From Bacteroidota bacterium (GTDB lineage: Bacteria; Bacteroidota; Bacteroidia; Bacteroidales; FEN-979): DNA of 64,000 bases. The notes beneath the pieces were generated by a model, which had not been told where the DNA came from, did no database searches, and saw only the letters and a program-made list of their open reading frames with translations. The stretch spans positions 16,883 through 80,882 of the forward strand of contig JAPLDL010000020.1 in the NCBI GenBank assembly GCA_026391735.1. The letters are read 5' to 3'. Shown piece after piece: positions 2,083 to 54,911 of the stretch. Numbering within the stretch: the first letter of the stretch is position 1; each line of letters begins with the position of its first letter. The position numbers and the translations under genes are program-made.

Positions 2083-2114
2083 GTAATCTCGTAATCTCGT
2101 AATCCCGTTATCCC
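2083..2114. repeat. Octamer tandem array, GTAATCYC x4
   Basis: Four consecutive 8-nt units: GTAATCTC, GTAATCTC, GTAATCCC, GTTATCCC. The array ends 8 bp before the ATG of the M23 peptidase gene, so it probably lies in its 5' leader. It is one of about ten short tandem arrays in the window. Confidence 0.8.
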
Positions 2115-2122
2115 TGTAACAA

Positions 2123-3853
2123 ATGTCCAAACTGTTTCTTCTTTCCGTACTCTCTTCAATGCTGTTTTTGCCATCGAATATCCCGATTGGTGCTGAAAAA
2201 TATCCCCAGAATTATTTCCGTTCCCCGGTGGATTTCCCTATAGCGCTGGCTGGTTCATTCGGGGAATTAAGGAAAAATCATTTTCATTCGGGAATAGACA
2301 TCCGTACCGGTGGAAAAACAGGGAAACCGGTATATGCAGCGGCTGACGGATATATTGCGAGGGTGTTTGTCTCTCCTGCCGGGTTCGGCAAGGCCCTGTA
2401 TATAGCACATCCGAACGGGTATACGACGGTTTATGGGCATTTACTGAGGTTTAGCGGGGCCATTGGAAACTGGATCGCGAAACAGCAATACATCCAGGAG
2501 AGCTTTGCGCTTGATATCGAGGTTCCAAAAGGGTTGCTGAAAGTAAAAAAAGGTGATGTCGTTGCACTCTCGGGCAATTCCGGAGCATCCGGAGGCCCCC
2601 ATCTTCATTTCGAGGTCAGGGAATCGGGCAGCCAGGAAGTGATCAATCCGCTGGAGTTCGGTTTTGATGTTCCTGATAACACGCCTCCAAAGATCACCGC
2701 TGTAAAAATCTACCCTTTCGACCCCCATGCCTTGGTCAATTATTCCGATAAGCCTTTGATGCTCGGAGTGACGGGGGGAGGCAAAAGCTATTCTGTTAAA
2801 AGCCCCGACACCATCAAGGTTTCAGGCAATATTATTTTCGGCCTGGAAACAACAGATTTTTCTGATAATTCGGGTATGAAAAACGGAGTTCCATCGCTTG
2901 CCCTAAGCATAGATAATGAACCGGTTTATTCACACCACCTTGAAAAGTTCGCATTTGCAAATACCCGTTATGTGAACAGCCTTCTGGATTATCCTTTGCT
3001 GATCCACAGTAACCGAAAGATCCAGCGCTCCTATGTGGCTCCCAATAATAAGAACGATATCTATAGCAAGGTGAAAAACCGGGGTGTCATTAATTTCAAT
3101 GATAACAAAGCACATAAAGTAGTCTATACGGTCACTGACCTCTATGGAAATGAATCCAGGCTGGTGTTTTGGGTGAAAAGTCATCCGCCTGCAGGGAAAC
3201 ATCCTGAAAAACCGATACTGAAAGGTGTGCAGATGATGCCCTGCCAGCAGGAAAATCATTTTGTCAGCACCGATATACTACTTGACATTCCCAAAGATGC
3301 ACTATATGAAGACCTGGATTTCGAATATTCCCCGGAACCGCCCGTAAGCGGAACATATGCAAGGCTTCACAAGGTTCATAACGAAGATACTCCCCTGCAT
3401 GTTAACTGCAGCCTTGCAATCAAGCCAACCAGCCTTCCGAAGGAACTGACTGATAAAGCAGTTATTGTAGCGATAGAACCAGGCCATAGGTTCTATTCCA
3501 AAGGCGGGGTATGGGAAAAAGGATTTCTGAAGACCCAGATAAAGGATTTCGGCGACTATAGCATTGCTGTTGACACCGAACCCCCTGTGATAAGGGCTGT
3601 GAATGTGAAACCGGGCAAAAACCTTGCAGGTCAGGGCAGCATCATGTTTAAGATCACCGATAACCTCGCTGGTATCAAATCATACAGGGGAACAATGAAC
3701 GGGAAGTGGATACTGATGGATTATGATGCAAAGACCAGCACCCTTACATACTTTATCGACGAACATATGCCCAAAGGCAAAAATAATTTTCTGCTGGTAG
3801 TAACCGATGCTGTAGGCAACCAGAGCAGATATGATGCAGTATTGGTGAGGTAA
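2123..3853 (+). CDS. M23 family metallopeptidase (LytM-type), exported
   Basis: 576-residue exported protein with a signal peptide (about 1-24). The LytM/M23 zinc peptidase domain covers about 50-185: HSGID at 55-59 gives the first His/Asp ligands, VYGHL follows near 106, and PHLHF at 159-163 carries the HxH motif. All metal and catalytic residues expected of the family are present, so an active peptidoglycan endopeptidase acting in the periplasm is likely. The ~390-residue C-terminal half is beta-rich and not recognised; it contains two segments with 'DTEPPVIRAVNVKPGKN'-like Ig features and may position the enzyme. The start was chosen at the ATG directly before the signal peptide. It is followed after 56 bp by a lipoprotein gene on the same strand. 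Confidence 0.88.
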   Translation: MSKLFLLSVLSSMLFLPSNIPIGAEKYPQNYFRSPVDFPIALAGSFGELRKNHFHSGIDIRTGGKTGKPVYAAADGYIARVFVSPAGFGKALYIAHPNGYTTVYGHLLRFSGAIGNWIAKQQYIQESFALDIEVPKGLLKVKKGDVVALSGNSGASGGPHLHFEVRESGSQEVINPLEFGFDVPDNTPPKITAVKIYPFDPHALVNYSDKPLMLGVTGGGKSYSVKSPDTIKVSGNIIFGLETTDFSDNSGMKNGVPSLALSIDNEPVYSHHLEKFAFANTRYVNSLLDYPLLIHSNRKIQRSYVAPNNKNDIYSKVKNRGVINFNDNKAHKVVYTVTDLYGNESRLVFWVKSHPPAGKHPEKPILKGVQMMPCQQENHFVSTDILLDIPKDALYEDLDFEYSPEPPVSGTYARLHKVHNEDTPLHVNCSLAIKPTSLPKELTDKAVIVAIEPGHRFYSKGGVWEKGFLKTQIKDFGDYSIAVDTEPPVIRAVNVKPGKNLAGQGSIMFKITDNLAGIKSYRGTMNGKWILMDYDAKTSTLTYFIDEHMPKGKNNFLLVVTDAVGNQSRYDAVLVR

Positions 3854-3909
3854 TCAAATTATGGCGCTCTCTATAAAAAGTGTTCATCCGTTTTCATAAC
3901 TTTACTGCC

Positions 3910-4881
3910 ATGAAATTATCAATATTGATCATCCAATGCTTCGTAATATGCTGTATTGCGATGCTGGTTTCGTGTAAAAAGAAATCAGACAATCAGGGCG
4001 AAAACTCCTCAACCGGTTACCGGATAATCCAGGAGAAGAACTATTACAATAATTTGTTGGAAGACAGGACTGACTTTTCCTACTCGGGAAACAACCTCAC
4101 TGAGATCTTTGGATATACCCAAGGCACAAAAGCCGGTCCAGACGGAAAGATCACACTTGAATACGAAGGGGGAAATATCTCCAGGGTTTCTGTATTCGCT
4201 AATATCAGCGGAGCATGGAGCATCATGGAAGAGGCTCTGGCGGTTAGCTATACAGGCAGTTTGCCGGCTGAACGTATAATTACTACCTATGATGATACAG
4301 GGTCGGTCACAAACCAGGTACGTTACACCGATACCTATCTCAACGGACAAGTGAATGAGGAGAAGTCGTATTCCATGCAGGATGGTTCCTGGGTGCTTGA
4401 ATACAGGGATCAATATATTTACAATGCCCAGGGACAGTTGCAAAACATAAGGAGTTATTTTGGCAGCGGTGATCAGAGAGCAGCCGTAACCTATTTATGG
4501 CAGAACAACCTTATTGTGGAGGAACAAAGCAGCAATACCGACAGTTCACTTCTTCACAAGGTTGAATACAGCTATTCAGGAACAAGCCTGACCGGAGAAG
4601 TAAGGTCGGTTTTTATTGACAATTCCTGGACGCAAACCGGCACTACCTCATATGTGTATGATACCCAGGGGAACCTGTCAAGCCAGACCGACAGATATAC
4701 GACGCCCTCCGATGTTTTCAGGCTGGATTTTACTTATGAAGCCGGCAAGGGGAACTTCCGCCAGTTGTATGTTGTTATGGGCGCTGCACCTTTATGGAAT
4801 GGCGCTCCCTTTCCTATGCCAACGAAAAGTTCGGGTTTGCCTGACGGTCAGCTCAGAGATGTTTTTCACCGGAACCGGTAA
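3910..4881 (+). CDS. Lipoprotein of unknown function, YD-repeat-like
   Basis: 323 residues from the ATG at 3910; an upstream in-frame ATG at 3880 would put 10 extra residues before the signal sequence and is less likely. A hydrophobic segment is followed by the lipobox LVSC, so this should be an outer-membrane or periplasmic lipoprotein. The rest is made of short beta-hairpin-like units rich in Tyr, Asp, Gly and Asn (YSYSGTSLTGEVRS, SYVYDTQGNLSSQ), reminiscent of YD/RHS-type repeats or DUF4595-like Bacteroidota lipoproteins. No enzyme motif is seen. It lies between the M23 gene and guaA on the same strand. Confidence 0.7.
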   Translation: MKLSILIIQCFVICCIAMLVSCKKKSDNQGENSSTGYRIIQEKNYYNNLLEDRTDFSYSGNNLTEIFGYTQGTKAGPDGKITLEYEGGNISRVSVFANISGAWSIMEEALAVSYTGSLPAERIITTYDDTGSVTNQVRYTDTYLNGQVNEEKSYSMQDGSWVLEYRDQYIYNAQGQLQNIRSYFGSGDQRAAVTYLWQNNLIVEEQSSNTDSSLLHKVEYSYSGTSLTGEVRSVFIDNSWTQTGTTSYVYDTQGNLSSQTDRYTTPSDVFRLDFTYEAGKGNFRQLYVVMGAAPLWNGAPFPMPTKSSGLPDGQLRDVFHRNR

Positions 4882-4925
4882 ATACAGCAATTTTATTCAG
4901 CCTTTTATCCTGAGAAATTTCTTGC

Positions 4926-4933
4926 TATTTTTG
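4926..4933 (+). promoter_or_regulatory. Candidate -7 box for guaA
   Basis: TATTTTTG matches TAnnTTTG and ends only 4 bp before the guaA ATG. If used, transcription would start on or beside the start codon, giving a leaderless or near-leaderless mRNA. No -33 TTG is seen at the right spacing. Confidence 0.4.
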
Positions 4934-4937
4934 CATT

Positions 4938-6467
4938 ATGCAGGAAACCATTCTAATTCTCGATTTCGGTTCCCAGTATACCCAGCTTATCGCACGCAGG
5001 GTAAGGGAACTGAATGTATTTTGTGATATCCATCCTTTCAATAATTTTCCTAAAGACATTCCCGGGCTCAAAGGCATTATCCTGTCGGGCAGCCCCTTCT
5101 CTGTGAGGGACCAGAATGCCCCTTACCCCAACCTGTCGGGGATCAAGGGGAAAGTCCCCGTTCTTGGGGTCTGTTATGGCGCACAATACCTGGTACATTC
5201 TTTGGGCGGTGAAGTAGCGCCTTCGAAGATTCGTGAATATGGCCGGGCTAACCTGGGTTTTATCGACCAGACCTGCCGCCTGCTCCGGGGTATGGCCACA
5301 GGCACCCAGGTTTGGATGTCCCATGCCGATACCATCCTGAAAGCCCCTGCTTCCTTCAGGATCACCGGATCCACTTCGGATGTTGAATATGCTGCATTTA
5401 AAATAGAAGGCGAAGAATCTTATGGCATACAGTTCCACCCTGAAGTCTACCATACCACTGAAGGCCTTACCTTACTAAAAAATTTCGTTGTCCACATTTG
5501 CGGATGCAAGCAGGACTGGACCCCCGAATTATTCGTTGAAACTACAGTTAAGGAACTCAGTGCCAAACTTGGTGACGATAAAGTAGTTTTGGGATTGAGC
5601 GGGGGAGTGGATTCATCGGTTACAGCCATGCTCCTTAACAAGGCTATACATAAAAACCTGTATTGTATATTTGTTGATAATGGTTTACTGCGGAAGGACG
5701 AATTTTCCAAAGTCATGGAGCGCTACAAAAAACTCGACCTGAATGTGACTGGTGTTGATGCCAGAGACCAGTTCCTGGATGCTCTCAAAGGGGTTTCCGA
5801 CCCGGAAAAGAAACGTAAAATCATTGGCAAGACATTCATTGATGTATTCGACCAGGAGGCACATAAGATACAGGGCATTTCCTGGCTTGCCCAGGGAACT
5901 ATTTATCCCGATGTGATAGAATCCCGCTCGGTCAAAGGGCCTTCAGCGACCATTAAATCCCATCATAATGTGGGCGGACTGCCTGAATACATGAAGCTCA
6001 AGATTGTTGAACCCCTGAATTTCCTTTTTAAAGATGAAGTGCGCCGTGTCGGCCTGAAACTCGGACTGGATCCCGAATTCATAAACCGGCATCCTTTTCC
6101 CGGACCGGGCCTGGCCGTGCGTATCATCGGAGACCTTACACGTGAAAAGATAAGCCTGCTGCAGGATGTGGATGATATTTATATTGCCGGATTACGTAAG
6201 TATGACCTCTATCATAAGGTTTGGCAGGCCTTCGCAGTGCTGCTTCCGGTTCAGTCGGTCGGTGTGATGGGAGATGAGAGGACATACGAAAATGTGGTAG
6301 CTTTGCGTGCAGTGACCTCTACCGACGGGATGACAGCCGACTGGGCACACCTGCCCCACGAATTTCTCGCGAAAGTCAGCAATGATATTATTAATAAGGT
6401 TAAAGGAGTGAACAGGGTGGTCTATGATATATCGTCCAAGCCTCCTGCCACGATTGAATGGGAATAA
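4938..6467 (+). CDS. guaA: GMP synthase (glutamine-hydrolysing)
   Basis: Converts XMP to GMP with ATP and glutamine, the last step of guanine nucleotide synthesis, in the cytoplasm. The 509 residues match the normal two-domain length. The class I amidotransferase domain has the nucleophile Cys79 in GVCYGAQ and His167/Glu169 in FHPEV. The ATP-pyrophosphatase domain carries the PP-loop SGGVDSS at 221-227, and the dimerisation domain contains [12 protein letters not shown]. The ATG at 4938 gives the standard N-terminus [20 protein letters not shown]. The downstream neighbour is a LysM-domain gene separated by an octamer array. No defects seen. Confidence 0.98.
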
Positions 6468-6469
6468 TA

Positions 6470-6517
6470 CTGGATAACTGGATGACTGGATAACTGGGTA
6501 ACTGGGTAACTGGAGAT
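6470..6517. repeat. Octamer tandem array, CTGGATAA-type x6
   Basis: Six 8-nt units: CTGGATAA, CTGGATGA, CTGGATAA, CTGGGTAA twice, and the degenerate CTGGAGAT. The array begins 3 bp after the guaA stop and fills most of the gap to the LysM gene. The same unit forms a 16-copy array at 46885-47012, 40 kb away. Confidence 0.88.
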
Positions 6518-6538
6518 CCCACATCAAAATTTGAATCA

Positions 6539-8065
6539 ATGTACCGTCTTTTTTGTTTCTTAACGCTTCTCTCAGTCCTACACTGTGTGCAGGCCCAAAC
6601 CTACCAGGAGCAGCTGAATGCAATTCATTCCAGCGTTACCCAACAGAAGGATGGTAAATCATTTTATGTTCATATCGTTAAAAAAGGCCAAACCCTGTAT
6701 ATGATATCAAAAGCATACGGGGTTGATGTGAATGATATTATTGAGGAGAACCCGGTAGTCAAAGAGGGACTGAAAGCCGATCAGAAACTCCTGATCCCAT
6801 TCCCGCTTCAGAAAAAAGAGGATCCCTCCGCAAAACCGGAAACCGTGAACCGAAAACCGGAACCCGGAAGCCAGAAACTGGAAACCGGAACCCGGAACCC
6901 GGAAACCGGAAACCAGAAACCAGAAACCGGGACCCGGAAACCGGAACCCGCCTCCTCGGTTATCCCCTGCGGCTCTGACACCTCAGCCCTGCATAAACAA
7001 TATAATGTGGTTTTGATCCTTCCTCTTTACCTGGAAGAAGTTGAAGCCATGAACCCCGAAACAGCAACCGAGGAAACAATCGATAACTGGAATTCACTGA
7101 AATACCTGCCTTTTTATGAAGGCTTCAGGCTGGCTGTGGATTCGTTGCAGAAGCAAGGGCTACATCTCTTGATCCATGTGTACGACCTGGCTAAGGATTC
7201 CCTGAAAACCCAGCAATTGCTGAAAAAAGATGAACTCAGATCGGCCGACCTGATCATCGGCTTGCTGTTTAATAAGAACTTCCAGGCTGTAGCAAAATTT
7301 GCACGTGACCATAAGATCCCCATTGTGAACCCCCTGAGCGAACGTTCAGATGTGGTGGTTAACAATGAAATGGTTTTCAAAGCCAATCCCTCAAGAAGCA
7401 CACAGATCGAAAGTCTGGCCGATTTTATGCAGAAGAGCATGTACCGCGGGCAGATCATTATCATCAGGAACGGGCAGTTTAAGGATAAGGATATTGCCGA
7501 TAAACTTAAAAAGGAATGTCTTGGGAGGAACCTGAATGTTATTTTGGCCGAGGGACAGGATGTAGCCATTGGAAAGTTGTCAAAGGGGAAAGAGAATGTC
7601 GTGGTTGCTTTTGCAGATAACAACGCTTATGCTCTTGACCTCATGCGCCGGTTTTATGAACTCAGGAACGATTATAACCTGAACCTTATCGGACTCACCG
7701 ACTGGGAAAAGATCGAAGGGCTGGAAACGGATTTTCTTAACGGCCTCAGCACACACCTTGTATCACCCTGTTTCGTTGACTATACCGATAAGGGTGTTAA
7801 AACGCTTGTACAGCGGTATCAGCAAGTTTATAAAGCTGATCCGGGATCACTGTCATTCCAGGGTTTCGATGTCGGTTATTATTTCCTCTCGGCACTGATG
7901 AAATTTGGAAAAAATTTTCCATCCTGCATACAGGATTACAGGCAGAAAACTTCCCAAACCAGCTTTGAATTCAGGAGAGCAGGAAATAATGCCTCCAATG
8001 GATTTGAGAACCGGCACTGGTCGGTTTATAAATATGAGAGTTTTAAACTGGTCAGAGTGAATTAA
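6539..8065 (+). CDS. LysM domain plus type 1 periplasmic-binding fold protein
   Basis: 508 residues. A signal peptide (1-20, ending VQAQ) is followed by a LysM domain (about 42-88: YVHIVKKGQTLYMISKAYGV), which binds peptidoglycan. Residues 99-138 are a linker made of heptapeptides of the type KPETGTR, encoded by a 7-nt DNA repeat. From about 150 to the end there is an ABC-transporter substrate-binding-like domain (type 1 periplasmic-binding fold, as in branched-chain amino acid receptors), with NVVLILPLYLEE at its start and ADLIIGLLFNKNFQ further on. No transporter lies nearby, so a structural or sensory role in the cell envelope is more likely than uptake. The guaA-LysM neighbourhood is, from memory, common in Bacteroidota. 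Its stop overlaps the stop of the convergent universal stress gene by 4 bp. Confidence 0.85.
   Translation: MYRLFCFLTLLSVLHCVQAQTYQEQLNAIHSSVTQQKDGKSFYVHIVKKGQTLYMISKAYGVDVNDIIEENPVVKEGLKADQKLLIPFPLQKKEDPSAKPETVNRKPEPGSQKLETGTRNPETGNQKPETGTRKPEPASSVIPCGSDTSALHKQYNVVLILPLYLEEVEAMNPETATEETIDNWNSLKYLPFYEGFRLAVDSLQKQGLHLLIHVYDLAKDSLKTQQLLKKDELRSADLIIGLLFNKNFQAVAKFARDHKIPIVNPLSERSDVVVNNEMVFKANPSRSTQIESLADFMQKSMYRGQIIIIRNGQFKDKDIADKLKKECLGRNLNVILAEGQDVAIGKLSKGKENVVVAFADNNAYALDLMRRFYELRNDYNLNLIGLTDWEKIEGLETDFLNGLSTHLVSPCFVDYTDKGVKTLVQRYQQVYKADPGSLSFQGFDVGYYFLSALMKFGKNFPSCIQDYRQKTSQTSFEFRRAGNNASNGFENRHWSVYKYESFKLVRVN
6835..6946. repeat. Heptamer tandem array inside a coding sequence, ACCGGAA x16
   Basis: Sixteen consecutive 7-nt units with consensus MCCGGAA lie inside the LysM gene. 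Because 3 x 7 = 21 nt, the reading frame repeats every seven residues and the DNA is read as about 5.3 heptapeptides of the type [KN]-[PL]-E-[TP]-[GV]-x-[RQ]. The reading frame stays open throughout. Two units of the same family occur outside genes at 28929-28942. Confidence 0.9.
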
Positions 8066-28784: not shown

Positions 28785-28928
28785 GGTAAAATCATGATCA
28801 TCACCAGCTGCCGAAGCAATTGGTGATCATGACATCACGACCGTTGTTAACTTATTTTTATAATTACAGGCAGGCCCGGCACTCTCCATACGGCAATTTT
28901 TTGTAATTTAGTCCACCAGAAACCTGCA

Positions 28929-28942
28929 ACCGGAAACCGGGA
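28929..28942. repeat. Short heptamer pair, ACCGGAA-ACCGGGA
   Basis: Two 7-nt units of the family that makes the coding array at 6835-6946, preceded by a degenerate unit. It lies in the gap between folP and DUF1599. Confidence 0.4.
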
Positions 28943-30646: not shown

Positions 30647-31731
30647 TAAGCTTTATTTTCCAGCGGCTCGGCTATGGATTCCTTGTCCTTCTTGGAGTGG
30701 TTGTCGTGATATTCTTTCTGTTCAACATACTCCCGGGGGATCCTGCCCGGATGATGCTTGGGCAGAGGGCCGACAGCTCTTCTGTGGCGGCATTGAAAAA
30801 GGAACTTGGGACCGACAAACCTTTGGCTGTTCAGTTTGTCTCTTACCTGAACGACCTCAGCCCTGTCTCATTCCACACGCTCAACCAGCCTGGAGGCAGC
30901 TTTAATTACGATCCAGCCAAATATGGCCTGCCCGTTTATTTCCTGGGGTCGCAAAAATACATGGTAGCCGTAAAATATCCCTGCCTGAGAAAGAGTTACC
31001 AGACCCGGAGAAATGTTTCCGAGTTGTTAATCGAAAGTTTCATCAATACATTCATTCTCGCGGTCGTGGCCATGCTCTTTGCACTTTTCGTGGGGATAGG
31101 CCTTGGTATCATTTGCGCCCTGCACAAGAATTCATTTATCGACCGTATTTCACTTGTGATTTCAGTTTTAGGTATGTCCCTCCCTTCTTTTTTTGCTGCC
31201 ATCCTCATTGCCTGGATTTTTGCTTTCCTGCTTGGACATTATACCCACCTGAATATGGCAGGCAGCCTTTTCTCGGTCGATGACCTGGGACGAGGAGAAT
31301 ACCTGGATCTGAAGAACCTGATCCTTCCGGCATTGACCCTGGGCATAAGGCCTCTTGCAATCATTGTGGAACTCACACGGAATTCTCTGCTTGAAGTATT
31401 GTCGCAGGATTACATCCGCACAGCAAAGGCTAAAGGATTAAGCCCTCGCAGGATAATCCTGAAGCATGCCCTTAAGAATGCCCTTAACCCTGTTGTCACT
31501 GCGGCGACAGGATGGCTTGCATCCCTTTTGGCAGGAGCAGTTTTCGTGGAATATATTTTTGACTGGAAAGGAATAGGGCTTGTGATCGTGAACGCATTGG
31601 ATAAATATGACTTTCCCGTGATCATGGGCGCGGTGCTGTTTATTTCGGTAATATTAATTTTAATTAATATATTGGCGGATATCCTTTACGGTGTAATCGA
31701 TCCGAGAGTGAGATTAACAAATGAAAAATAG
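30643..31731 (+). CDS. ABC transporter permease, DppB/OppB type
   Basis: 362 residues with six membrane helices. The N-terminal signature FNILPGDPARMMLGQRADSS and the C-terminal EAA region (RTAKAKGLSPRRIILKHALK, followed by NALNPVVTAATGW) identify a peptide/nickel-type importer permease (BPD_transp_1). It starts inside the stop region of the DoxX gene (ATGA overlap) and is followed by tpiA after 6 bp. No partner permease, ATP-binding proteins or substrate-binding protein are near, so they must be encoded elsewhere or the protein works alone. Confidence 0.9.
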   Translation: MISFIFQRLGYGFLVLLGVVVVIFFLFNILPGDPARMMLGQRADSSSVAALKKELGTDKPLAVQFVSYLNDLSPVSFHTLNQPGGSFNYDPAKYGLPVYFLGSQKYMVAVKYPCLRKSYQTRRNVSELLIESFINTFILAVVAMLFALFVGIGLGIICALHKNSFIDRISLVISVLGMSLPSFFAAILIAWIFAFLLGHYTHLNMAGSLFSVDDLGRGEYLDLKNLILPALTLGIRPLAIIVELTRNSLLEVLSQDYIRTAKAKGLSPRRIILKHALKNALNPVVTAATGWLASLLAGAVFVEYIFDWKGIGLVIVNALDKYDFPVIMGAVLFISVILILINILADILYGVIDPRVRLTNEK

Positions 31732-40014: not shown

Positions 40015-41469
40015 ATGAAAGAGATAAGTCCGAACCTTGAAAATTTGAACGAAGTATTCCCTGATAATTTCACTCAGGAGCAAATTGCTAAAGGCAAAAC
40101 CTTGTTTTTAAAGAAACTTTCTGAAGCAGCCCATGCGTTCTATTCGGGCAAAATACAGACCGTCCCCAAAGCTCCGGTTCCGGGCTTTAACTGGTTTAAT
40201 GTGTGGTATACCCCAGGGGTTTCCAAAGTGTCGACAAATATTAGGGACCGAAACGACAGTTCTTTTGAGCTGACGAACCGGGGCAACCTTGTTGCTGTTG
40301 TAAGTGATTCGACCAGGGTTCTCGGCGACGGGGATTGCACCCCTTCGGGCGGGCTTGGTGTTATGGAAGGAAAGGCTTTTCTGATGAAATACCTGGGAGG
40401 GGTCGATGGTGTCGCGTTATGTGTCGACAGCAAGGATGAAAACGGTAAAAATGATCCTGAAAGGATCATTCAGTTTGTTAAAATGGTGCAACATAGTTTT
40501 GGAGCCATCAACCTTGAAGACATTTCCCAGCCTAATTGTTTCAGAGTGCTGGATGTGCTCAGGGAAGAATGTGATATCCCGGTATGGCATGATGATGCCC
40601 AGGGTACTGCATGCGTTACGCTGGCAGGGGTTATCAATTCATTGAAACTTGCAGGAAAGAAGATAGGGGAGGTCCGCATCGTATTACATGGCGCAGGTGC
40701 TTCTAATACTACTATCGCACGTCTTCTGATAACCGATGGGGCCGATCCCGCAAAGATCGTCATGTTTGACACCAGAGGCTCTCTTCATTCAGACAGAAAG
40801 GATATTGAGGCCGATAAACGTTTTTACCGCAAATGGGAGCTCTGCCTGTCAACAAACCCTGGCAAGATCCCGACAATGGAAGAAGCCATGAAAGATGCCG
40901 ATGTGCTGATCTCTCTGTCAACCCCAGGCCCTGATGTGATCAAGAGACCATGGATCAAAAGTATGGCAGCGAAATCTATTGTTTTCTGTTGTGCCAACCC
41001 GGTTCCGGAGATCTACCCTTATGCTGCGAAGGAAGAAGGTGCATATATTGTTGCTACCGGTCGCGGAGACTTCCCAAACCAGGTCAATAACTCTATTGGA
41101 TTCCCGGGTATCCTGAAAGGAGCCCTGATGGTAAGAGCACGAAAGATAACTGACAACATGGCTATAAGGGCTGCTCACTCACTTGCCGATTATGCCGAGA
41201 AGAGAGGAATATCGCCTGAAGATATCGTACCGACCATGGAAGAGGCAGGAGTATTTCCGCACGAAGCAGCCGATGTCGCAATGCAAGCCATTGCCGACGG
41301 GGTTGCACGAGTTACGATGACACGCGAAGAGGCATTTGAAAAAGCCAGCAAGGATATTGATTATTCCAGGTCTTTGACACGTTCTTTAACTGATAACGGG
41401 TTTATTGAAAAGCCACCTCTCGGTATGATCAAGGACGCATTAAGCTGGGCGGTGGAACAAGTGAAATAA
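40015..41469 (+). CDS. Malic enzyme, NAD(P)-dependent
   Basis: 484 residues. Oxidative decarboxylation of malate to pyruvate. The malic N-terminal domain has WYTPGVSKVSTNI and VVSDSTRVLGDGD (metal site), then LMKYLGGVDGVALCVDS. The metal- and substrate-binding VWHDDAQGTACVTLAGVI leads to the NAD-binding domain with IVLHGAGASNTTIARLL. It lacks the phosphotransacetylase domain of the ~760-residue MaeB form, and at 484 residues is a short bacterial type. Stop at 41467-41469; a weak heptamer array follows. Confidence 0.93.
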   Translation: MKEISPNLENLNEVFPDNFTQEQIAKGKTLFLKKLSEAAHAFYSGKIQTVPKAPVPGFNWFNVWYTPGVSKVSTNIRDRNDSSFELTNRGNLVAVVSDSTRVLGDGDCTPSGGLGVMEGKAFLMKYLGGVDGVALCVDSKDENGKNDPERIIQFVKMVQHSFGAINLEDISQPNCFRVLDVLREECDIPVWHDDAQGTACVTLAGVINSLKLAGKKIGEVRIVLHGAGASNTTIARLLITDGADPAKIVMFDTRGSLHSDRKDIEADKRFYRKWELCLSTNPGKIPTMEEAMKDADVLISLSTPGPDVIKRPWIKSMAAKSIVFCCANPVPEIYPYAAKEEGAYIVATGRGDFPNQVNNSIGFPGILKGALMVRARKITDNMAIRAAHSLADYAEKRGISPEDIVPTMEEAGVFPHEAADVAMQAIADGVARVTMTREEAFEKASKDIDYSRSLTRSLTDNGFIEKPPLGMIKDALSWAVEQVK

Positions 41470-41493: not shown

Positions 41494-41514
41494 TATCCGA
41501 CATCCGACATCTGA
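41494..41514. repeat. Short heptamer array, YATCYGA x3
   Basis: TATCCGA, CATCCGA, CATCTGA, then degenerate. It sits in the gap between the convergent malic enzyme and alpha-galactosidase genes, and belongs to the CATCYG family seen at 51983, 53434 and 54884. Confidence 0.55.
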
Positions 41515-41522
41515 CGTCTCTC

Positions 41523-44523: not shown

Positions 44524-46872
44524 ATGAATTCAGGAACAGGTATTAAAATAGTAATGCTTTCTGTTTTTTCAGTACTGTTAATCCGGCCAGTTGGGGCACA
44601 GGCCGTATCGGGCTATGTTTACGAAAAAACCGGAGATGGAAAGCAGGGAGCCCTCCCCGGTGTAAATGTTTACTGGGCGGGAACCACCAAAGGAACATTC
44701 ACAGATGAAAACGGGAAATTCCGCCTTTCCCGCACCGGAAACGGGAATTCCAGGCTTGTCGTGAGCCTGCTGGGATACCGCAGGGATACTCTGCTGGTGT
44801 CAAAGGATAAATCAAAGCTTGACATCGAGATGCAGCCAGGCGACAGGGAATTGTCAGAAGTTGAGATTAAAGCAAGACAGGATAATTCGTATGTCTCTAA
44901 AATGAAGACCCAGGCGACGACGGTCATTAACATAGGCGAACTCCAGAGAGCAGCCTGCTGTAACCTGGCCGAGAGTTTTGAAACAAATGCCTCAGTCGAC
45001 GTTTCATACAGTGATGCCGTGTCGGGAGCCAGGCAGATCCAATTGCTGGGTCTCAGCGGGATCTATAGCCAGATCATGACCGAAAATGTACCGCTTATCC
45101 GTGGGCTTGCAACACCTTATGGCCTTAATTATGTACCTGGTCCCTGGATGGAATCCATCCAGGTGGCTAAAGGCACTTCATCAGTTGTTCAGGGATATGA
45201 ATCCATCACCGGGCAGATCAATGTAGAGTATAAAAAACCGGAGAGTGTTGAGAAGTTCTACTTGAATCTGTATGGCAACAGTAACCTCAGGTTTGAAGCC
45301 AATGCCAACGGGTCGGTAAAGATCACCGATAAACTGAGTACATCCCTTCTTGTTCATGCCGATGATTTCAGGTTCCCGTTCGACAGGAACGGAGACGGGT
45401 TTATGGACATGCCCAAGCTGACCAATGTCAATGTGTTTAACCGATGGGATTTTATTAACCCGGGTAAATGGGTATCCAGGCTCGGAGTAAAATACCTTTA
45501 CGAGGAACGTAACGGTGGGCAGATGGATTTTGTGAAAAACAGCTGGAATACCGATACTACCGGTATCACCAACGATTCCAAGAAATACGGGATAGGTATT
45601 AAAACTAACCGCTTCGAAGCATTCTGGAAGAACGGCATATTCTTTAAGGGAACTGCCGGCTCAAGTCTCGGTTTGATATTGTCGTTCATTAATCATGAAC
45701 AGGATGCATTTTACGGCATCAATCTGTACCATGGCCATGAACAGAATTTCAATGCTAACCTTATCTATACAGCCCAGTTCAACGGTGAAAAGCATAAGAT
45801 CTCGGCCGGCGGAAGTTATTTTATTGATGGTTATTCCGAGAATTTTATCCAGACCAGGCTGGCATATCGGTACCAGTACCTGCCCGATACGGTAAGCCCT
45901 ACTTATGCCGATAAGTTCACCCTGGTCAATGATTCCTTATATACATATGTGATGGACCGTTCGGAATGGGCTGCTGGTGGTTTTATGGAATACACTTTCA
46001 ATCTCAAGGATAAGTTCACTCTTATTGCCGGTGTTCGGGGTGATTATAACAGCCGTTGGGGGTTTTTGTTCACACCCAGGCTTCATTTGAGGGTAACACT
46101 CGCCAAGGGGCTTGCCTTGAGGGGATCGGTCGGAAAGGGGTACCGCTCACCCAACCTTCTTGCCGAGAATTCCCCCATGCTGATCAGCCAGAGGGTCCTG
46201 TATTTTGCACCCTCACTTTCGAATGAGGAAGCCTGGAATTTCGGGCTCAGCCTCACCTGGGATTTTAACCTTTTCAGCCGTAAAGCCCAGTTCACAATCG
46301 ATGGTTACAGCACCCAGTTTGTAAAACAGGTGGTCGTTGACCAGGATAGCCTCCCCACAGCTGTATTCTTTTACAACCTTAACGGTTCATCCTATGCAAA
46401 CGTAGCCCAGGCACAATTCAGTTTTCAGCCTGTCAAACAATTTACAATACTGGCTGCTTTCCGATACAATGACGTGAAAGTGACCGAAGGGAGCCAGCTC
46501 AGGCAAAAAGCCCTCGTTAACCAGTATAAGGCGCTACTGACCCTGAGTTACGCAACCCGTTTCGACAAGTGGAAGTTTGACCTCACAGGGCAGATGAACG
46601 GTAATTCACGCATTCCTGATACAAAGAAAATGCCTGCTGTGCTTCAGCTTCCTGAGAAATCACCGGTTTGGTTTAATTTGCTGGCCCAGGTAACCAGAAA
46701 ATTCAAGAACTTTGAAGTTTACATCGGGGGTGAAAACCTGCTTAATGTACGACAGGACAATCCGATTGTTGAGTATTTCAAACCTTATCATACACATTTT
46801 GATGCCTCCATGGCCTGGGGACCGGTGGTTGGGATCACAGGGTACGCGGGGATACGGCTGACGATAAAGTGA
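44524..46872 (+). CDS. TonB-dependent receptor, metal-set type
   Basis: 782 residues: signal peptide (about 1-25), carboxypeptidase-regulatory-like domain (30-115, YVYEKTGDGKQGALPGVNVY), plug (about 130-235, with LQRAACCNLAESFETNASVD and IQLLGLSGIYSQIMTENVPL), then a barrel ending GYAGIRLTIK. The Cys-Cys in AACCNLAESFETN is, from memory, typical of receptors adjacent to HMA-domain proteins in Bacteroidota and may bind metal at the plug. Neighbours upstream (HYC_CC_PP-like) and downstream (HMA) support a role in copper or related metal traffic. The ligand has not been shown. Octamer and heptamer arrays follow the stop. Confidence 0.9.
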   Translation: MNSGTGIKIVMLSVFSVLLIRPVGAQAVSGYVYEKTGDGKQGALPGVNVYWAGTTKGTFTDENGKFRLSRTGNGNSRLVVSLLGYRRDTLLVSKDKSKLDIEMQPGDRELSEVEIKARQDNSYVSKMKTQATTVINIGELQRAACCNLAESFETNASVDVSYSDAVSGARQIQLLGLSGIYSQIMTENVPLIRGLATPYGLNYVPGPWMESIQVAKGTSSVVQGYESITGQINVEYKKPESVEKFYLNLYGNSNLRFEANANGSVKITDKLSTSLLVHADDFRFPFDRNGDGFMDMPKLTNVNVFNRWDFINPGKWVSRLGVKYLYEERNGGQMDFVKNSWNTDTTGITNDSKKYGIGIKTNRFEAFWKNGIFFKGTAGSSLGLILSFINHEQDAFYGINLYHGHEQNFNANLIYTAQFNGEKHKISAGGSYFIDGYSENFIQTRLAYRYQYLPDTVSPTYADKFTLVNDSLYTYVMDRSEWAAGGFMEYTFNLKDKFTLIAGVRGDYNSRWGFLFTPRLHLRVTLAKGLALRGSVGKGYRSPNLLAENSPMLISQRVLYFAPSLSNEEAWNFGLSLTWDFNLFSRKAQFTIDGYSTQFVKQVVVDQDSLPTAVFFYNLNGSSYANVAQAQFSFQPVKQFTILAAFRYNDVKVTEGSQLRQKALVNQYKALLTLSYATRFDKWKFDLTGQMNGNSRIPDTKKMPAVLQLPEKSPVWFNLLAQVTRKFKNFEVYIGGENLLNVRQDNPIVEYFKPYHTHFDASMAWGPVVGITGYAGIRLTIK

Positions 46873-46884
46873 GATGCAGGATGA

Positions 46885-47012
46885 CTGGATAGCTGGATGA
46901 CTGGATAGCTGGATAGCTGGATAGCTGGATGGCTGGATGACTGGATGGCTGGATAACTGGATAGCTGGATAGCTGGATGACTGGATTACTGGATTACTGG
47001 ATTACTGGATAT
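46885..47012. repeat. Octamer tandem array, CTGGATNN x16
   Basis: Sixteen perfectly in-phase 8-nt units; the first six bases (CTGGAT) are invariant and only the last two vary (AG, GA, GG, AA, TA, AT). The last four copies all have T at position 7. It starts 13 bp after the TonB receptor stop. The same unit occurs at 6470-6517. Confidence 0.95.
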
Positions 47013-47040
47013 CTTGTATCCTGCATCCAGAAATATAAAA

Positions 47041-47096
47041 ACATAAAACATAAAACATAAAACATAAAACATAAACCATAAATCATAAACCATAAA
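47041..47096. repeat. Heptamer tandem array, ACATAAA x8
   Basis: Five ACATAAA units, then CCATAAA, TCATAAA, CCATAAA. It ends 4 bp before the HMA gene ATG, so if transcribed from upstream it forms its leader. It lies 28 bp after the octamer array, giving two unrelated units in one 228 bp gap. Confidence 0.9.
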
Positions 47097-47100
47097 AACA

Positions 47101-47472
47101 ATGAAACCAATGAAAACAAAAATCAAAATTCTAAGCAGCATGATGCTGTTGATCTTTATTCTGGCATCCGGAACAACTTTCAGCCAGGATAAAAAGACAG
47201 AAACAATAAAAATAAAGACTTCTGCAGTTTGCGATATGTGCAAAGACCGAATTGAACAGGGGATGGCTTTTGAGAAAGGAGTGAAGAACGTGGTGTTGGA
47301 TGTGAAAACCAAAATCGTCACTATTACCTATGTCCCATCCAAAACAACTCCTGACGACCTTCGTAAGGCTATTTCAAAGTTGGGATATGATGCGGATAAC
47401 GTTGCTGCAGATAAAGCTGCCTATTCAAAGTTGCCGGCCTGCTGCAAAAAGGACGCAGCTACAAAGAAGTAA
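47101..47472 (+). CDS. Exported heavy-metal-associated (HMA) domain protein
   Basis: 123 residues. Signal peptide (about 1-29, ending TTFSQ), then a ferredoxin-like HMA domain (about 34-100) with the metal-binding Cys44-x-x-Cys47 in SAVCDMCKDR; the second half ISKLGYDADNV closes the fold. A second Cys pair (Cys114-115) lies in the Lys-rich tail. It resembles periplasmic MerP/CopZ-type metallochaperones and probably binds Cu(I), Hg or a similar ion outside the inner membrane. A GXXCXXC consensus is partly lost (Ala-Val before the first Cys). No metal ATPase or MerR regulator is in the window. A terminator lies at 47498-47533. Confidence 0.88.
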   Translation: MKPMKTKIKILSSMMLLIFILASGTTFSQDKKTETIKIKTSAVCDMCKDRIEQGMAFEKGVKNVVLDVKTKIVTITYVPSKTTPDDLRKAISKLGYDADNVAADKAAYSKLPACCKKDAATKK

Positions 47473-47497
47473 TAATGCAAATCAGCTAACCAAAAGC

Positions 47498-47533: not shown

Positions 47534-47552
47534 AATTCTGGTAGTCTAAAGG

Positions 47553-50375: not shown

Positions 50376-50534
50376 AGTTTTATAGTTTTAAAAAAGGATT
50401 TTTTTTGCTAAAATTTGAACCTGCAAAATTACAAGAAATTTCGACTTAAAGAATTAATCCTCAGGGAAAATTCATTGCTTAATGGTCGGCGGATAAGGTT
50501 TCCCCCTGTTCTCGCATACTCGGGTTTCAAGCTC

Positions 50535-51230: not shown

Positions 51231-51232
51231 TT

Positions 51233-51281
51233 GTAATTCGTACTTTGTAATTCGTAAATCGTAAATCGTAAATCGTAATTT
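51233..51281. repeat. Heptamer tandem array, GTAAWTC x7
   Basis: GTAATTC, GTACTTT, GTAATTC, GTAAATC three times, GTAATTT. It fills essentially the entire 50 bp gap between the mtgA start and the stop of the upstream gene, and its last base is part of that stop codon. Confidence 0.85.
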
Positions 51282-51922: not shown

Positions 51923-51982
51923 GGTTTGCTTTTTGTTTTAAAATTAATCCTTTCCTACCTGGCCTGCAAAGAATTTTATCAA

Positions 51983-52073
51983 CATCCGCCATCCGCCATC
52001 CGCCATCTGCCATCCGCCATCCGCCATCCGCCATCTGCCATCCGCCATCTGCCATCTGCCATCCGACATCCCT
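51983..52073. repeat. Heptamer tandem array, CATCYGC x11-13
   Basis: Eleven perfect units of CATCCGC or CATCTGC (51983-52059) and two degenerate ones (CATCCGA, CATCCCT). It ends 2 bp before the -33 TTG of the LKR promoter at 52076. The reverse complement of its unit forms the array after LKR at 53462-53489. Confidence 0.93.
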
Positions 52074-52075
52074 CC

Positions 52076-52105
52076 TTGCTTTCTCAGGCGCTTTTCGTAC
52101 TTTTG
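52076..52105 (+). promoter_or_regulatory. Two-box promoter for the lysine-degradation pair
   Basis: TTG (52076-52078), 19 bp spacer, TACTTTTG (52098-52105), both boxes matching the Bacteroidota consensus. The ATG of the LKR gene lies 25 bp downstream. Confidence 0.6.
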
Positions 52106-52130
52106 CTGTGAATTCCTTAACTACTATACT

Positions 52131-53438
52131 ATGAGTAACTATATTGGCATCAGACACGAGGATAAATACGAGCATGAACGCCGTGCCCCGCTTACCCCCA
52201 AGCATGTTGCAAGGCTTGTGAAGCAGAAAAAACTTGATATTGTGGTGGAAACTTCGGCTAAAAGAATTTTCACCGATACTGAATATGTCGAAGCCGGAGC
52301 AACGATCTGTGATAACCTGAACGACTGCTCGGTGATCTTTGGTGTGAAGGAGATCCCCGAACATTATTTCGAGATGGAGAAAACGTATGTGTTTTTCTCT
52401 CATGTCATCAAAGGGCAGAAATATAATATGCCCATGCTTAAACGGATGATGGAACTGAAATGCAATCTCATCGAATATGAAAAGATCGTGGATGAGCAGG
52501 GCAAACGGCTTATTTTCTTCGGACGTTTTGCAGGAATGGCCGGGATGATCAATTCATTCTGGTCACTGGGTCTTCGCCTGAAGGATTTTGGCTACCAAAC
52601 CGAATTACTTAAGATCAGGCAGGCTCATGAATATGCCTCCCTGAAAGAAGCCAAAGATGCCATATCCTACGTTGGGGAACTGATCGCCGAAAATGGGATC
52701 AATCCACTTTTTCGCCCCTTCGTTATCGGATTTACTGGTTACGGAAATGTTTCCCAGGGGGCACAGGAGATCTGCGGACTTCTTCCTGTTAAAGAAATAT
52801 CGGCTGAGAAATTGCTTGAGCTTCAAAAGCGAAAACATGTACCCAATAATATTGTTTACAAGGTTGTATTCAGGGAAGAAGACCTGTATGAGAACATCCA
52901 CGGTCATCCCTTTGACCTTCATGAATACATGCATAACCCCCAGGATTTTAAAAGTAAATTTGACCAATACATTCCTTATTTGTCATTGCTCATCAATTGC
53001 ATATATTGGGATAAGCGTTTTCCAAGGCTGGTTACCAAGGATTATCTTGAAAAACTGTTTTCGAAAGGAAGGCCCAAACTAACAGTCATTGGAGATATCA
53101 GCTGCGATGTTGAAGGCTCTGTTGAATGTACCCTGCATCCTACTATAATCTCTGATCCTTTTTTTATTTATGACCCCCTGAGCCGTACTTCCAAACCAGG
53201 GCATAAGGGTGATGGTTTGCTTGTTATGGCTGTTGATATTCTTCCTGCCGAATTGCCCAGGGATGCATCCGATGGCTTTGCCGACGCACTTGTTAATTTT
53301 GTCAAACCTATTGCCGATGCCGATTTTGACGAACCTTTCGAGGACCTTGACCTGCCGCGTGCAATAAAGAAAGGGCTTATCCTTCATAAGGGAGAACTTA
53401 CCCCCGATTTCAAGTATCTCGAGGAATTTTTAATCTGA
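52131..53438 (+). CDS. Lysine-ketoglutarate reductase (saccharopine-forming) domain protein
   Basis: 435 residues. The start YIGIRHEDKYEHERRAPLTP is the alanine-dehydrogenase/PNT-like N-terminal domain seen in the LKR half of the eukaryotic bifunctional enzyme AASS. GFTGYGNVSQGAQEICGLLP near 209-228 is the pyridine-nucleotide site; DISCDVEGSVECTL follows in the C-terminal part. It joins lysine and 2-oxoglutarate to saccharopine. The next gene supplies the partner saccharopine dehydrogenase. This two-gene arrangement is known from several Bacteroidota. Preceded and followed by heptamer arrays. Confidence 0.88.
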   Translation: MSNYIGIRHEDKYEHERRAPLTPKHVARLVKQKKLDIVVETSAKRIFTDTEYVEAGATICDNLNDCSVIFGVKEIPEHYFEMEKTYVFFSHVIKGQKYNMPMLKRMMELKCNLIEYEKIVDEQGKRLIFFGRFAGMAGMINSFWSLGLRLKDFGYQTELLKIRQAHEYASLKEAKDAISYVGELIAENGINPLFRPFVIGFTGYGNVSQGAQEICGLLPVKEISAEKLLELQKRKHVPNNIVYKVVFREEDLYENIHGHPFDLHEYMHNPQDFKSKFDQYIPYLSLLINCIYWDKRFPRLVTKDYLEKLFSKGRPKLTVIGDISCDVEGSVECTLHPTIISDPFFIYDPLSRTSKPGHKGDGLLVMAVDILPAELPRDASDGFADALVNFVKPIADADFDEPFEDLDLPRAIKKGLILHKGELTPDFKYLEEFLI

Positions 53439-53489
53439 TATCCGATATCTGATATCTGATGGCAGATGGCAGATGGCAGATGGCAGATA
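53434..53489. repeat. Composite heptamer array, TCYGATA x4 then GCAGATG x4
   Basis: TCTGATA, TCCGATA, TCTGATA, TCTGATG, then GCAGATG three times and GCAGATA. The array starts in the last codons of LKR, so the first TCTGATA contains the LKR stop codon TGA. GCAGATG is the reverse complement of CATCTGC from the array at 51983. Confidence 0.92.
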
Positions 53490-53515
53490 ACATAATCTCT
53501 TAACCCATACTAATT

Positions 53516-54874
53516 ATGACTCAGAAAGTACTCATCCTCGGAGCCGGGCTGGTAGCCAGGCCAATCGTTAAACACCTCTTGTCAAAGGGTTTTTTTGTTA
53601 CAGTTGCATCCAATACACCCGACCGGGCTACCGGGATGATCGGCGATCATCCTTCAGGTAAAACTGTTTACTGGGAGGCAACAGATGAACCTGCACTGGA
53701 TTCTTTAATTGCCGCTCATGACCTGACGGTAAGCATTCTCCCATATACATTTCACGTTATGGTGGCACGTCACTGCATAGCCCATAAAAAGAATATGGTG
53801 ACGACTTCCTATGTCAAACCTGAAATGCGCGAACTGGATGGAAAGGCAAAAGAAGCAGGTATAATCATTCTCAATGAAATAGGACTTGATCCGGGTATTG
53901 ATCATATGTCGGCGATGCGCATCATTGACCGTATTCATTCAAAAGAGGGTGCAGTCCTTGAATTCTACAGCATCTGCGGGGCATTACCGGCGCCGGAAGC
54001 GGCCGGTAATCCATTCAGATACAAGTTTTCATGGAGCCCAAAAGGGGTGGTTATGGCGGGGAATAATGATGCATTGTATCTCAGGCAGGGCAAGATCGTG
54101 AATGTCCCGACAAGAGAACTTTTCAATGACCCGTTCACTGTCCAATTTCCTTCAGTGGGAAAACTTGAAGTTTACCCCAACCGTGATTCAATAGCCTACA
54201 GGGATATTTATTGCATCCCGGAAGCCCGGTCGGTTTACCGGGGCACCTTCCGCTTTAAAGGCTGGTGCGAAAGCCTGAATGTTATAAAACAACTCGGATT
54301 GATCTCGTATGAGAAATCCGACCTGTCGGGCATGAGCTTTGCTGATATGGTCGGGAAACAGCTGAAGAGTCTTGGATATAAAGCAGGTATTGCAAACCGT
54401 AATATACGATTTGATGTGTCTGATTGCCTGGGGATCCCCGTTGATTCACATGCCCTTGATGCCATGGAATGGCTGGGATTGTTTGAGGATAAACCTATGA
54501 ACCGTGCAACAGACAGCACATTTGAGGTGGTATCGGATCTTATGATTGAGAAAATGGGCCTGGGAGAGAATGAAAGGGATATGGTCGTCCTGCAGCATAC
54601 TTTTCTTGCAGCTTATTCGGATGGAAGAAAGGAGGTCATCCGTTCCCGCATGCTTGATTTCGGAACACCCTCTACTGATACGTCCATTGCCCGTACGGTG
54701 GCGCTGCCTGCTGCGATCGGAGTCGAAATGATCCTGAAAGGGGAGATCCGCGAAACCGGGGTTCATATTCCTGTTATCCCTTCAATTTATGAACCGGTGT
54801 TGAATGCCCTGGAAGCTCTTGGCATTAAAATGACAGAGGAATTTGGACTTCCGCTATCAGAAAATATAAAATGA
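53516..54874 (+). CDS. Saccharopine dehydrogenase
   Basis: 452 residues. Rossmann start KVLILGAGLVARPIVKHLLS, then the substrate-binding domain with EIGLDPGIDHMSAMRIIDRI and the C-terminal half resembling the SDH part of AASS/Lys9 (DMVVLQHTFLAAYSDGRKEV, ARTVALPAAIGVEMILKGEI). It oxidises saccharopine to glutamate and 2-aminoadipate semialdehyde. It lies 77 bp after LKR with a heptamer array in between, so co-transcription is likely but not certain. With dapD also in the window, this cell both makes and breaks down lysine. Confidence 0.92.
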   Translation: MTQKVLILGAGLVARPIVKHLLSKGFFVTVASNTPDRATGMIGDHPSGKTVYWEATDEPALDSLIAAHDLTVSILPYTFHVMVARHCIAHKKNMVTTSYVKPEMRELDGKAKEAGIIILNEIGLDPGIDHMSAMRIIDRIHSKEGAVLEFYSICGALPAPEAAGNPFRYKFSWSPKGVVMAGNNDALYLRQGKIVNVPTRELFNDPFTVQFPSVGKLEVYPNRDSIAYRDIYCIPEARSVYRGTFRFKGWCESLNVIKQLGLISYEKSDLSGMSFADMVGKQLKSLGYKAGIANRNIRFDVSDCLGIPVDSHALDAMEWLGLFEDKPMNRATDSTFEVVSDLMIEKMGLGENERDMVVLQHTFLAAYSDGRKEVIRSRMLDFGTPSTDTSIARTVALPAAIGVEMILKGEIRETGVHIPVIPSIYEPVLNALEALGIKMTEEFGLPLSENIK

Positions 54875-54883
54875 AATTTCGGG

Positions 54884-54911
54884 ATATCCGACATCTGATA
54901 TCCGACATCCA
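54884..54911. repeat. Short heptamer array, RYATCYG x4
   Basis: ATATCCG, ACATCTG, ATATCCG, ACATCCA, alternating two unit types. It lies between saccharopine dehydrogenase and the TerB/DnaJ gene and shares the TCYGATA-type core of the array at 53434. Confidence 0.7.

What the first reader, a model, noticed from the sequence alone, without database searches (positions are those of the whole stretch)
2083..54911. A dispersed system of heptamer and octamer tandem arrays between genes
At least ten arrays of 7-nt or 8-nt units lie in the window, nearly all in gaps: GTAATCYC at 2083, CTGGATNN at 6470 and 46885, ACCGGAA at 6835 and 28929, YATCYGA at 41494, ACATAAA at 47041, GTAAWTC at 51233, CATCYGC at 51983, TCYGATA plus GCAGATG at 53434, RYATCYG at 54884. 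Units are kept in phase while their sequence differs between sites, and several units recur far apart. In form this is like the heptanucleotide STRR repeats known in heterocystous cyanobacteria; I know of no named equivalent in Bacteroidota. A slippage- or template-based process that seeds 7/8-nt units in gaps would explain it. Possible effects include mRNA spacing, phase variation of expression, or a nucleoid or repair protein that recognises them.
Basis: partly seen in the sequence, partly recalled or inferred. Interest (0 to 1): 0.75.

Follow-up and report, generated by a model that had tools for sequence, protein, structure and literature searches.

The report
Heptamer arrays rewritten between bacterial species
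Uncultured Bacteroidales bacteria of one family carry many short runs of 7- or 8-letter DNA words between genes and inside loops of core enzymes, and related species can hold different words at the same spot, which likely reflects local stuttering of DNA copying plus exchange of words between sites.

Summary
The window belongs to a 2.8 Mb Bacteroidales genome in which 7- and 8-nt arrays are the only common short tandem repeats: 33 + 10 in 861 kb, none in five shuffles. The host and four congeners together show 75 arrays of period 7 and 32 of period 8; no other period from 1 to 16 exceeds 4 in any genome. Such arrays are a known kind (cyanobacterial STRR, 'LSSR', Xanthomonas/Nostoc GGGNATC, and TAACTGA, also in five Bacteroidetes). 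New here: (1) arrays lie in frame in loops of AlaRS, PurL and MutS (25 of 39 family genes, 0 of 24 from other families; genes chosen because the host has arrays there); (2) orthologous gaps and loops can hold different words in different species; (3) arrays of one genome share words more than arrays of different genomes (215/1747 against 174/3924 pairs, 0 of 2000 permutations as high); (4) isolated words are not clearly enriched, on small counts. Likely mechanism: tandem growth in 7/8-nt steps plus word exchange between sites, tolerated where DNA or protein is unconstrained. Regulatory, RT- or RAYT-written origins are disfavoured. The exchange step is inferred; no strain data were available.

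The parts
2080..2119 (.). 8-nt array CCCGTAAT/GTAATCYC, 4.9 copies, in a divergent gap just before the ORF at 2123
   Evidence: no orthologous gap found in the three relatives
6469..6514 (+). 8-nt array CTGGATRR, 5.8 copies, starting 2 bp after the stop of a GMP-synthase gene
   Evidence: orthologous gap in G007 holds a TCAATCAA-type array
6833..6950 (+). 7-nt array AACCGGA, 16.9 copies, in frame inside ORF 6539-8065, between LysM and a periplasmic-binding-like stretch
   Evidence: the G001 ortholog has GGATCCC units at this linker
28915..28940 (.). short ACCGGAA array (3.7 copies, weak) in a divergent gap
   Evidence: G007 has a weak different array, CGAAATAG (score 10), in this gap
41495..41515 (.). 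7-nt array ATCYGAC (3 copies) in a convergent gap
   Evidence: G001 has GGATCAC, G007 GATTGATTGA at the same gap
46885..47011 (+). 8-nt array CTGGATRR, 16 copies, preceded by GATGCAGGAT and followed by ATCCTGCATC (inverted word pair)
   Evidence: the G001 gap is 15 bp, G002 has ATGTACA plus AATAACGC
47038..47097 (.). 7-nt array AAAACAT, 8.6 copies, in the same gap
51233..51280 (.). 7-nt array GTAAWTC that fills nearly the whole 50-bp gap between two - strand genes
51983..52071 (.). 7-nt array CATCYGC, 12.7 copies, divergent gap; C/T at one unit position is almost the only variation
   Evidence: G001 and G007 show no array here
53433..53488 (.). two abutting 7-nt arrays, ATCYGAT then GATGGCA (words in inverted relation), at a gene end and gap
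   Evidence: no gap in G001, TTGTACA in G007, ATGTACA in G002
54883..54909 (.). 7-nt array RYATCYG, about 4 copies, 49-bp gap
   Evidence: L065 (= G007) has TATCCGATATCCGACATCC, L053 has AGTCACC

Best explanation
These are STRR/LSSR-like 7- and 8-nt tandem arrays of one Bacteroidales family, which likely grow by local copying errors in steps of one to three units and are likely converted toward a genome-typical word by short copying between arrays at different sites. Shown: the sharp 7/8 period, presence in several genera of the family, different words at orthologous sites, the excess of shared words within a genome, and arrays in frame in loops of core enzymes. Inferred: that growth is replication slippage (from the higher-order 14/16/21/24-nt periods), that words pass between sites (from word sharing without clear enrichment of isolated words), and that the arrays are neutral passengers kept only where a gap, a linker or a surface loop tolerates them.
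For: Period: 75 arrays at 7 and 32 at 8 in five genomes (host and four congeners, 1.97 Mb), at most 4 per genome at any other period 1-16. Spread: TRF arrays of period 7/8 number 19 in 360 kb of seven congeners, 24 in 191 kb of ten genomes of other genera of the family (7 of the 10 have one), 0 in 149 kb of nine genomes of other families. Whole AlaRS/PurL/MutS genes: period-7 self-match in 25 of 39 family genes (22 of 36 without the host, whose arrays led to these genes), 0 of 24 outgroup genes. Different words at one site: AlaRS loop GCWTCCC (G000), GATCCAG (G001), GATGTAC (G003), GATGCAG plus its inverse (G004), GCATCCA (G010), GACGAGG plus GCATCAG (G011); gaps at window 6467, 41469, 46872, 53438. 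Word sharing: 215 of 1747 same-genome pairs against 174 of 3924 different-genome pairs, 0 of 2000 permutations as high; without the stretches picked around CTGGAT matches 116/1070 against 101/2846 (0 of 2000), and period 7 alone 62/517 against 71/1374 (1 of 2000). Random-word control 11.1 same-genome pairs against 225 observed. Isolated lexicon words not clearly enriched, e.g. CTGGATRR 5 seen, 3.6 expected in G000. Higher-order units, e.g. a 16-nt unit of 11 copies (C6:50358). In AlaRS, G000 and G001 have loops of equal length whose first four units all differ at unit positions 2 and 7.
Against: The order of CTGGATRR unit variants is not shared between the 16 arrays above shuffles (k = 4 to 7), so no copying of long tracts is seen. 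In the coding loops the dialect effect is small (shared 6-mers 0.107 within genome, 0.079 otherwise, 0 of 2000 permutations; same site in another genome 0.108, so inheritance is as strong). In the whole-genome pattern search GATGCAG recurs in most congeners, so the lexicon is largely shared and differs in weight. The second PurL array of G003, G004 and G007 is plainly inherited, not rewritten. Some isolated words run above expectation on very small counts (TCGTAAWT 7 against 3.4 in G000 and 3 against 0.8 in G006; MATAACGC 2 against 0.5 in G002; CTGGATRR 3 against 1.0 in G007; GATCCCGG 2 against 0.7 in G006; GATGCAGG 2 against 0.6 in G007), and the test has little power (8-32 kb per genome). 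18 of 51 coding loops have no clear period-7 array. Samples of G004 and G005 (20 and 16 kb), and of 3 of 10 genomes of other genera, had none by TRF. No strain-level copy-number data.
Confidence: 0.55

Rival explanations
1. Local slippage alone: a DNA polymerase contact of about 7 nt favours 7/8-nt duplications (the idea of Mrazek 2007 as cited in PMC4679880 and PMC4692102; not read here); words recur only because of sequence preference and common ancestry, with no exchange between sites.
For: Sharp 7/8 period, higher-order periods, unit order not shared between arrays, some arrays inherited in place.
Against: Word sharing within genomes far above random words (225 against 11.1) without clear enrichment of isolated words; words differ between congeneric species at one site; no array in 149 kb sampled from nine other families of the order, so a general polymerase property does not suffice.
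Confidence: 0.27
2. Functional sites: the words are bound by a regulator, nucleoid or RNA-binding protein, or set mRNA spacing or phase variation.
For: Site re-use between species (48 gaps: 4 shared, 2 G000 only, 3 other only, 39 neither, Fisher p 0.0024); the 7 CTGGATRR arrays (of 16) that begin within 12 bp of a stop codon are all in sense (counted).
Against: Words differ or are missing at orthologous gaps; arrays lie in loops of AlaRS, PurL, MutS; isolated words not clearly enriched. The 7 of 7 follows from the unit itself: CTGGA+TAA/TAG/TGA puts stops in all frames in sense and none in antisense, so genes end where a sense array begins.
Confidence: 0.08
3. Written or moved by a dedicated enzyme: a REP-type Y1 transposase (RAYT) or a reverse transcriptase that makes tandem-repeat DNA.
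For: Inverted word pairs near arrays (23 of 53, swap null mean 11.8, max 21 of 300; loops 26 of 51, null mean 10.6, max 20 of 1000); DRT10 makes tandem-repeat cDNA (PMC12632851, abstract and outline seen). Each of the 8 genomes of the genus has one Y1_Tnp match.
Against: Y1_Tnp (PF01797) has no match in G011, which has arrays, and has one in 19 of 24 genomes of other families. RVT_1 (PF00078) has no match in six of the seven congeners. Absence rests on draft genomes.
Confidence: 0.08
4. Assembly artefact.
For: Draft genomes; copy numbers of tandem arrays are error-prone.
Against: Arrays recur at orthologous sites in separate assemblies and stay in frame in core enzymes; reversed-pattern controls are 0 in the genus.
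Confidence: 0.02

Closest known systems
STRR heptanucleotide repeats of heterocystous cyanobacteria (recalled; search listing only)
   Same: 7-nt units, tandem, dispersed in gaps
   Different: other words; an 8-nt class is prominent here; in-frame arrays in core enzymes and word replacement between species are shown here
GGGNATC/GGGGAYT repeats of Xanthomonas and Nostoc (PMC4692102; abstract, sections 14 and 16 read)
   Same: heptamers, intergenic bias, single or inverted pairs, same gaps re-used between species; its discussion also notes length and sequence variation between close relatives
   Different: there 83% of the repeats of one species keep a G-rich pattern in the same gene context of the other; here sister species can carry unrelated-looking words at a site
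TAACTGA repeats of Beggiatoaceae, cyanobacteria and five Bacteroidetes (PMC4679880; abstract, sections 3 and 10 read)
   Same: 7-nt direct repeats in gaps, patchy spread, presence in Bacteroidetes, other heptamers mixed in, some sets inside ORFs (one in a putative purC), arrays absent from shorter gaps of relatives
   Different: one word followed, mostly just upstream of start codons in the type genome; here many words and no fixed place; TAACTGA arrays absent from the held sample (0 of 111 arrays)
Rickettsia palindromic elements (recalled; search listing only)
   Same: dispersed repeats that invade loops of essential proteins in frame, with inverted structure (recalled)
   Different: RPEs keep a family sequence (recalled); here the sequence is a variable 7-nt array

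Membership tests
STRR/LSSR-type 7-nt tandem repeats | tandem units of 5-11 nt, mostly 7, above chance | tested here: met
STRR/LSSR-type 7-nt tandem repeats | excess in non-coding DNA | tested here: met
   47 of 73 under 20% coding where 89-96% of each contig stretch is called coding
STRR/LSSR-type 7-nt tandem repeats | copy number varies between strains | not testable with these tools
   no second strain of the species was available
TAACTGA repeats (MacGregor) | unit TAACTGA | tested here: not met
   0 of 111 arrays hold that unit and TAACTGA twice in tandem occurs 0 times in the 1.97 Mb held from five genomes
REP/RAYT system | Y1 transposase accompanies the repeats | tested here: not met
   no Y1_Tnp match in array-bearing G011, though one in each of the 8 genomes of the genus; draft genomes
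REP/RAYT system | conserved palindrome sequence | tested here: not met
   words vary between and within genomes
RT-written tandem repeat DNA (DRT10-like) | reverse transcriptase present | tested here: not met
   no RVT_1 match in 6 of 7 congeners; draft genomes
Phase-variable SSR | copy-number switching that alters expression | not testable with these tools
   no expression or strain data
Rickettsia palindromic elements | in-frame presence in protein loops | tested here: met
   feature recalled
Rickettsia palindromic elements | conserved element sequence | tested here: not met
   words differ per genome; feature recalled

The most novel reading that the evidence does not exclude
A Bacteroidales family has a trans-acting process that writes and rewrites 7/8-nt words genome-wide in phase, in gaps and in loops of essential enzymes, so that each genome speaks its own heptamer dialect: a bacterial concerted evolution of dispersed satellites.
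Probability: 0.25. Interest if true: 0.85.

Novelty: new variant of a known kind. Interest (0 to 1): 0.6.

Why it matters
Heptamer repeats have been described in scattered bacteria without an agreed origin (PMC4679880, PMC4692102). Here a set of related genomes shows the same gap or protein loop with arrays of different words, which makes the origin testable: it can set slippage, word exchange and selection apart. It also shows core enzymes (AlaRS, PurL, MutS) tolerating repeat-encoded peptide in a loop, a possible route to new protein sequence.

Tried and rejected
Stop-codon function of CTGGATRR: variants AA/AG/GA dominate and GG is rare (3 seen, 14.4 expected among 167 RR units of G000), but two-step mutation and amplification explain this equally well, and the sense orientation at stop codons follows from the unit. 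Copying of whole arrays: unit order not shared. RAYT and reverse transcriptase as writers: not needed, as far as draft genomes tell. Single-word motif hypothesis: isolated words not clearly enriched, several small excesses told in the Against line. The Markov null for inverted words in loops (476 against 165) was dropped as too lax because it does not keep periodicity; the swap nulls are given instead. Outgroup loops by regular expression: only 7 of 27 could be parsed, and 0 of those 7 held an array; the whole-gene scan is used instead. One PurL loop of G005 (contig start) could not be parsed and is left out of the 51. Of the ten outgroup stretches one (G055, 422 bases) was dropped before counting.

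Choice of sequence: the G000 contigs came from those that the CTGGAT search listed, and C3, C10 and G006 C1 were picked around such matches; one search repeats the word test without C1, C2, C3, C10 and G006 C1. Five of ten other-genus stretches and eight of nine outgroup stretches lie on contigs that carry the PurL, AlaRS or MutS matches.

What is not in print rests on listings only. Searches (a further search; passages of PMC12632851) failed on their arguments and were not repeated; of PMC12632851 only abstract and outline were seen. One search timed out and was redone; one search failed and was redone; one search ended in an error after printing the G000 and G006 results used here.
Full report
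What was checked. The window lies in contig C17 of an unnamed 2,811,682-base genome in 25 contigs, 80% complete. Its nearest named relatives are uncultured Bacteroidales MAGs. In 860,882 bases of this genome, merged TRF arrays number 33 at period 7 and 10 at period 8, against 0 and 0 in five Markov shuffles. An ungapped self-match scan of the host and four congeners (861, 266, 269, 279 and 292 kb) gives 75 arrays of period 7 and 32 of period 8; no other period from 1 to 16 exceeds 4 in any genome. The pattern CTGGATNN repeated three times gives 283 overlapping matches in the host, 413 and 86 in two congeners, 0 to 4 in the five others, up to 164 in one sister genus, and 0 in 24 genomes of other families; 12 of 61 genomes have a match. 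The spread is patchy.

Where the arrays are. By my own codon-usage gene caller, 47 of 73 arrays of period 7/8/14/16/21/24 are intergenic. Of 33 TRF arrays whose best period is 7, 11 lie inside called genes; of 10 with best period 8, none does (counted). The coding ones include the window array 6833-6950, in frame between LysM and a periplasmic-binding-like stretch, and arrays in PurL (two sites), AlaRS, MutS, a GH92 enzyme, a chorismate-binding enzyme and a DegT-type aminotransferase. The octamer CTGGA+TAA/TAG/TGA carries stops in all frames in sense, which explains its absence from genes and why the 7 CTGGATRR arrays (of 16) that begin within 12 bp of a stop codon are all in sense; one antisense array lies 19 bp from a stop (counted).

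Related genomes. Of 49 window gaps, 48 have an orthologous gap in at least one of three congeners. Gaps with an array in both G000 and a congener number 4, G000 only 2, congener only 3, neither 39 (score 10 or more). At the four shared sites the words differ: at 41469 ATCYGAC, GGATCAC and GATTGATTGA; at 53438 ATCYGAT/GATGGCA, TTGTACA, ATGTACA, and no gap at all in G001; at 46872 CTGGATRR/ACATAAA against ATGTACA/AATAACGC, with 15 bp in G001; at 6467 CTGGATRR against TCAATCAA. At 31731 G000 has 6 bp and G002 about 22 copies of MATAACGC.

Loops of core enzymes. PurL, AlaRS and MutS queries matched in all 21 genomes searched, though PurL only distantly (26-29% identity) in G037 and G044. These genes were chosen because the host has arrays there. 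In the 13 family genomes the AlaRS loop, two PurL sites and the MutS linker give 51 loops; 33 have a period-7 self-match of 10 or more, 26 at 14, 1 at 8, 1 at 13 and none at other periods from 4 to 15. Whole genes: 25 of 39 in the family (22 of 36 without the host), 0 of 24 outside it, at score 11 or more. Words per genome are quoted in the For line. The solved AlaRS 3htz aligns through the loop without a gap, so in AlaRS the array replaces loop sequence rather than adding much. G003, G004 and G007 share an inherited array at the second PurL site, so replacement is not constant.

Dialects. Arrays of one genome share a word class in 215 of 1747 pairs, arrays of different genomes in 174 of 3924; no permutation of 2000 reached the former. 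Without stretches picked around CTGGAT matches the figures are 116/1070 and 101/2846 (0 of 2000); period 7 alone, 62/517 and 71/1374 (1 of 2000). Random words from the same non-coding DNA give 11.1 same-genome pairs (max 15) against 225 of 1817, and 24.9 (max 41) against 174 of 4288. Coding loops alone: 0.107 against 0.079 shared 6-mers, 0 of 2000; but the same site in another genome scores 0.108. A whole-genome pattern search in 8 genomes shows few words re-used with differing weight: GATGCAG on 19 of 20 matching contigs of G003 and in most congeners, GATCACG on 5 contigs of G005, GATCCCG on 4 of G000 and 2 of G006 (counted). Isolated words are not clearly enriched; the excesses, all on small counts, are told in the Against line.

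Inverted pairs. 23 of 53 G000 arrays have the reverse-complement word within 120 bp, swap null mean 11.8, maximum 21 of 300; direct words beyond the array 12, null 11.5. 26 of 51 coding loops hold at least two inverted 7-mers, null mean 10.6, maximum 20 of 1000. Inverted pairs are known for the Xanthomonas repeats (PMC4692102, section 14).

Mechanism. Higher-order periods (14, 16, 21, 24) point to tandem growth in unit steps. That alone does not explain one word at many sites when isolated words are not clearly enriched. I therefore infer an additional exchange of short stretches between arrays. Unit order gives no support to long-tract copying. Neither a Y1 transposase nor a reverse transcriptase tracks the arrays. 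Function as regulatory sites is unlikely because words differ between species and arrays also sit in enzyme loops.

Novelty. 7-nt tandem arrays in gaps are known, also in Bacteroidetes, with some sets inside ORFs (PMC4679880) and with sequence variation between close species (PMC4692102). I saw no report of word replacement at orthologous sites on this scale, of genome dialects, or of arrays in loops of AlaRS, PurL and MutS in the listings; subscription papers, Mrazek 2007 among them, were not read. I rate it a new variant of a known kind.

Noticed in passing
L128 (G011 PurL) and L150 (G011 AlaRS): The same permissive loops hold other repeat sequences in G011, in frame: a palindromic GGGGCGGGTTTGGAACCCGCCCC stretch and an 18-nt array in PurL, and CATTGCGAGGAGCGAAGCGACG in AlaRS.
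   Followed up: no
gap orthologous to window 46872-47101 in G007 (L100): Three copies of a REP-like GGCGCTTCGCGCC hairpin unit stand where G000 has arrays.
   Followed up: no
L038:4038-6761: The mismatch-repair gene mutS itself carries heptamer arrays in its C-terminal linker in 10 of 13 family genomes (score 10 or more).
   Followed up: partly
AlaRS loop, L131 (G000) and L132 (G001): Loops of equal length whose first four units all differ at unit positions 2 and 7, as if the word changed without a change in copy number.
   Followed up: partly
G008: The reversed control pattern of CTGGATNN gives 24 matches in this genome of another genus, so a different octamer family may be amplified there.
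   Followed up: no
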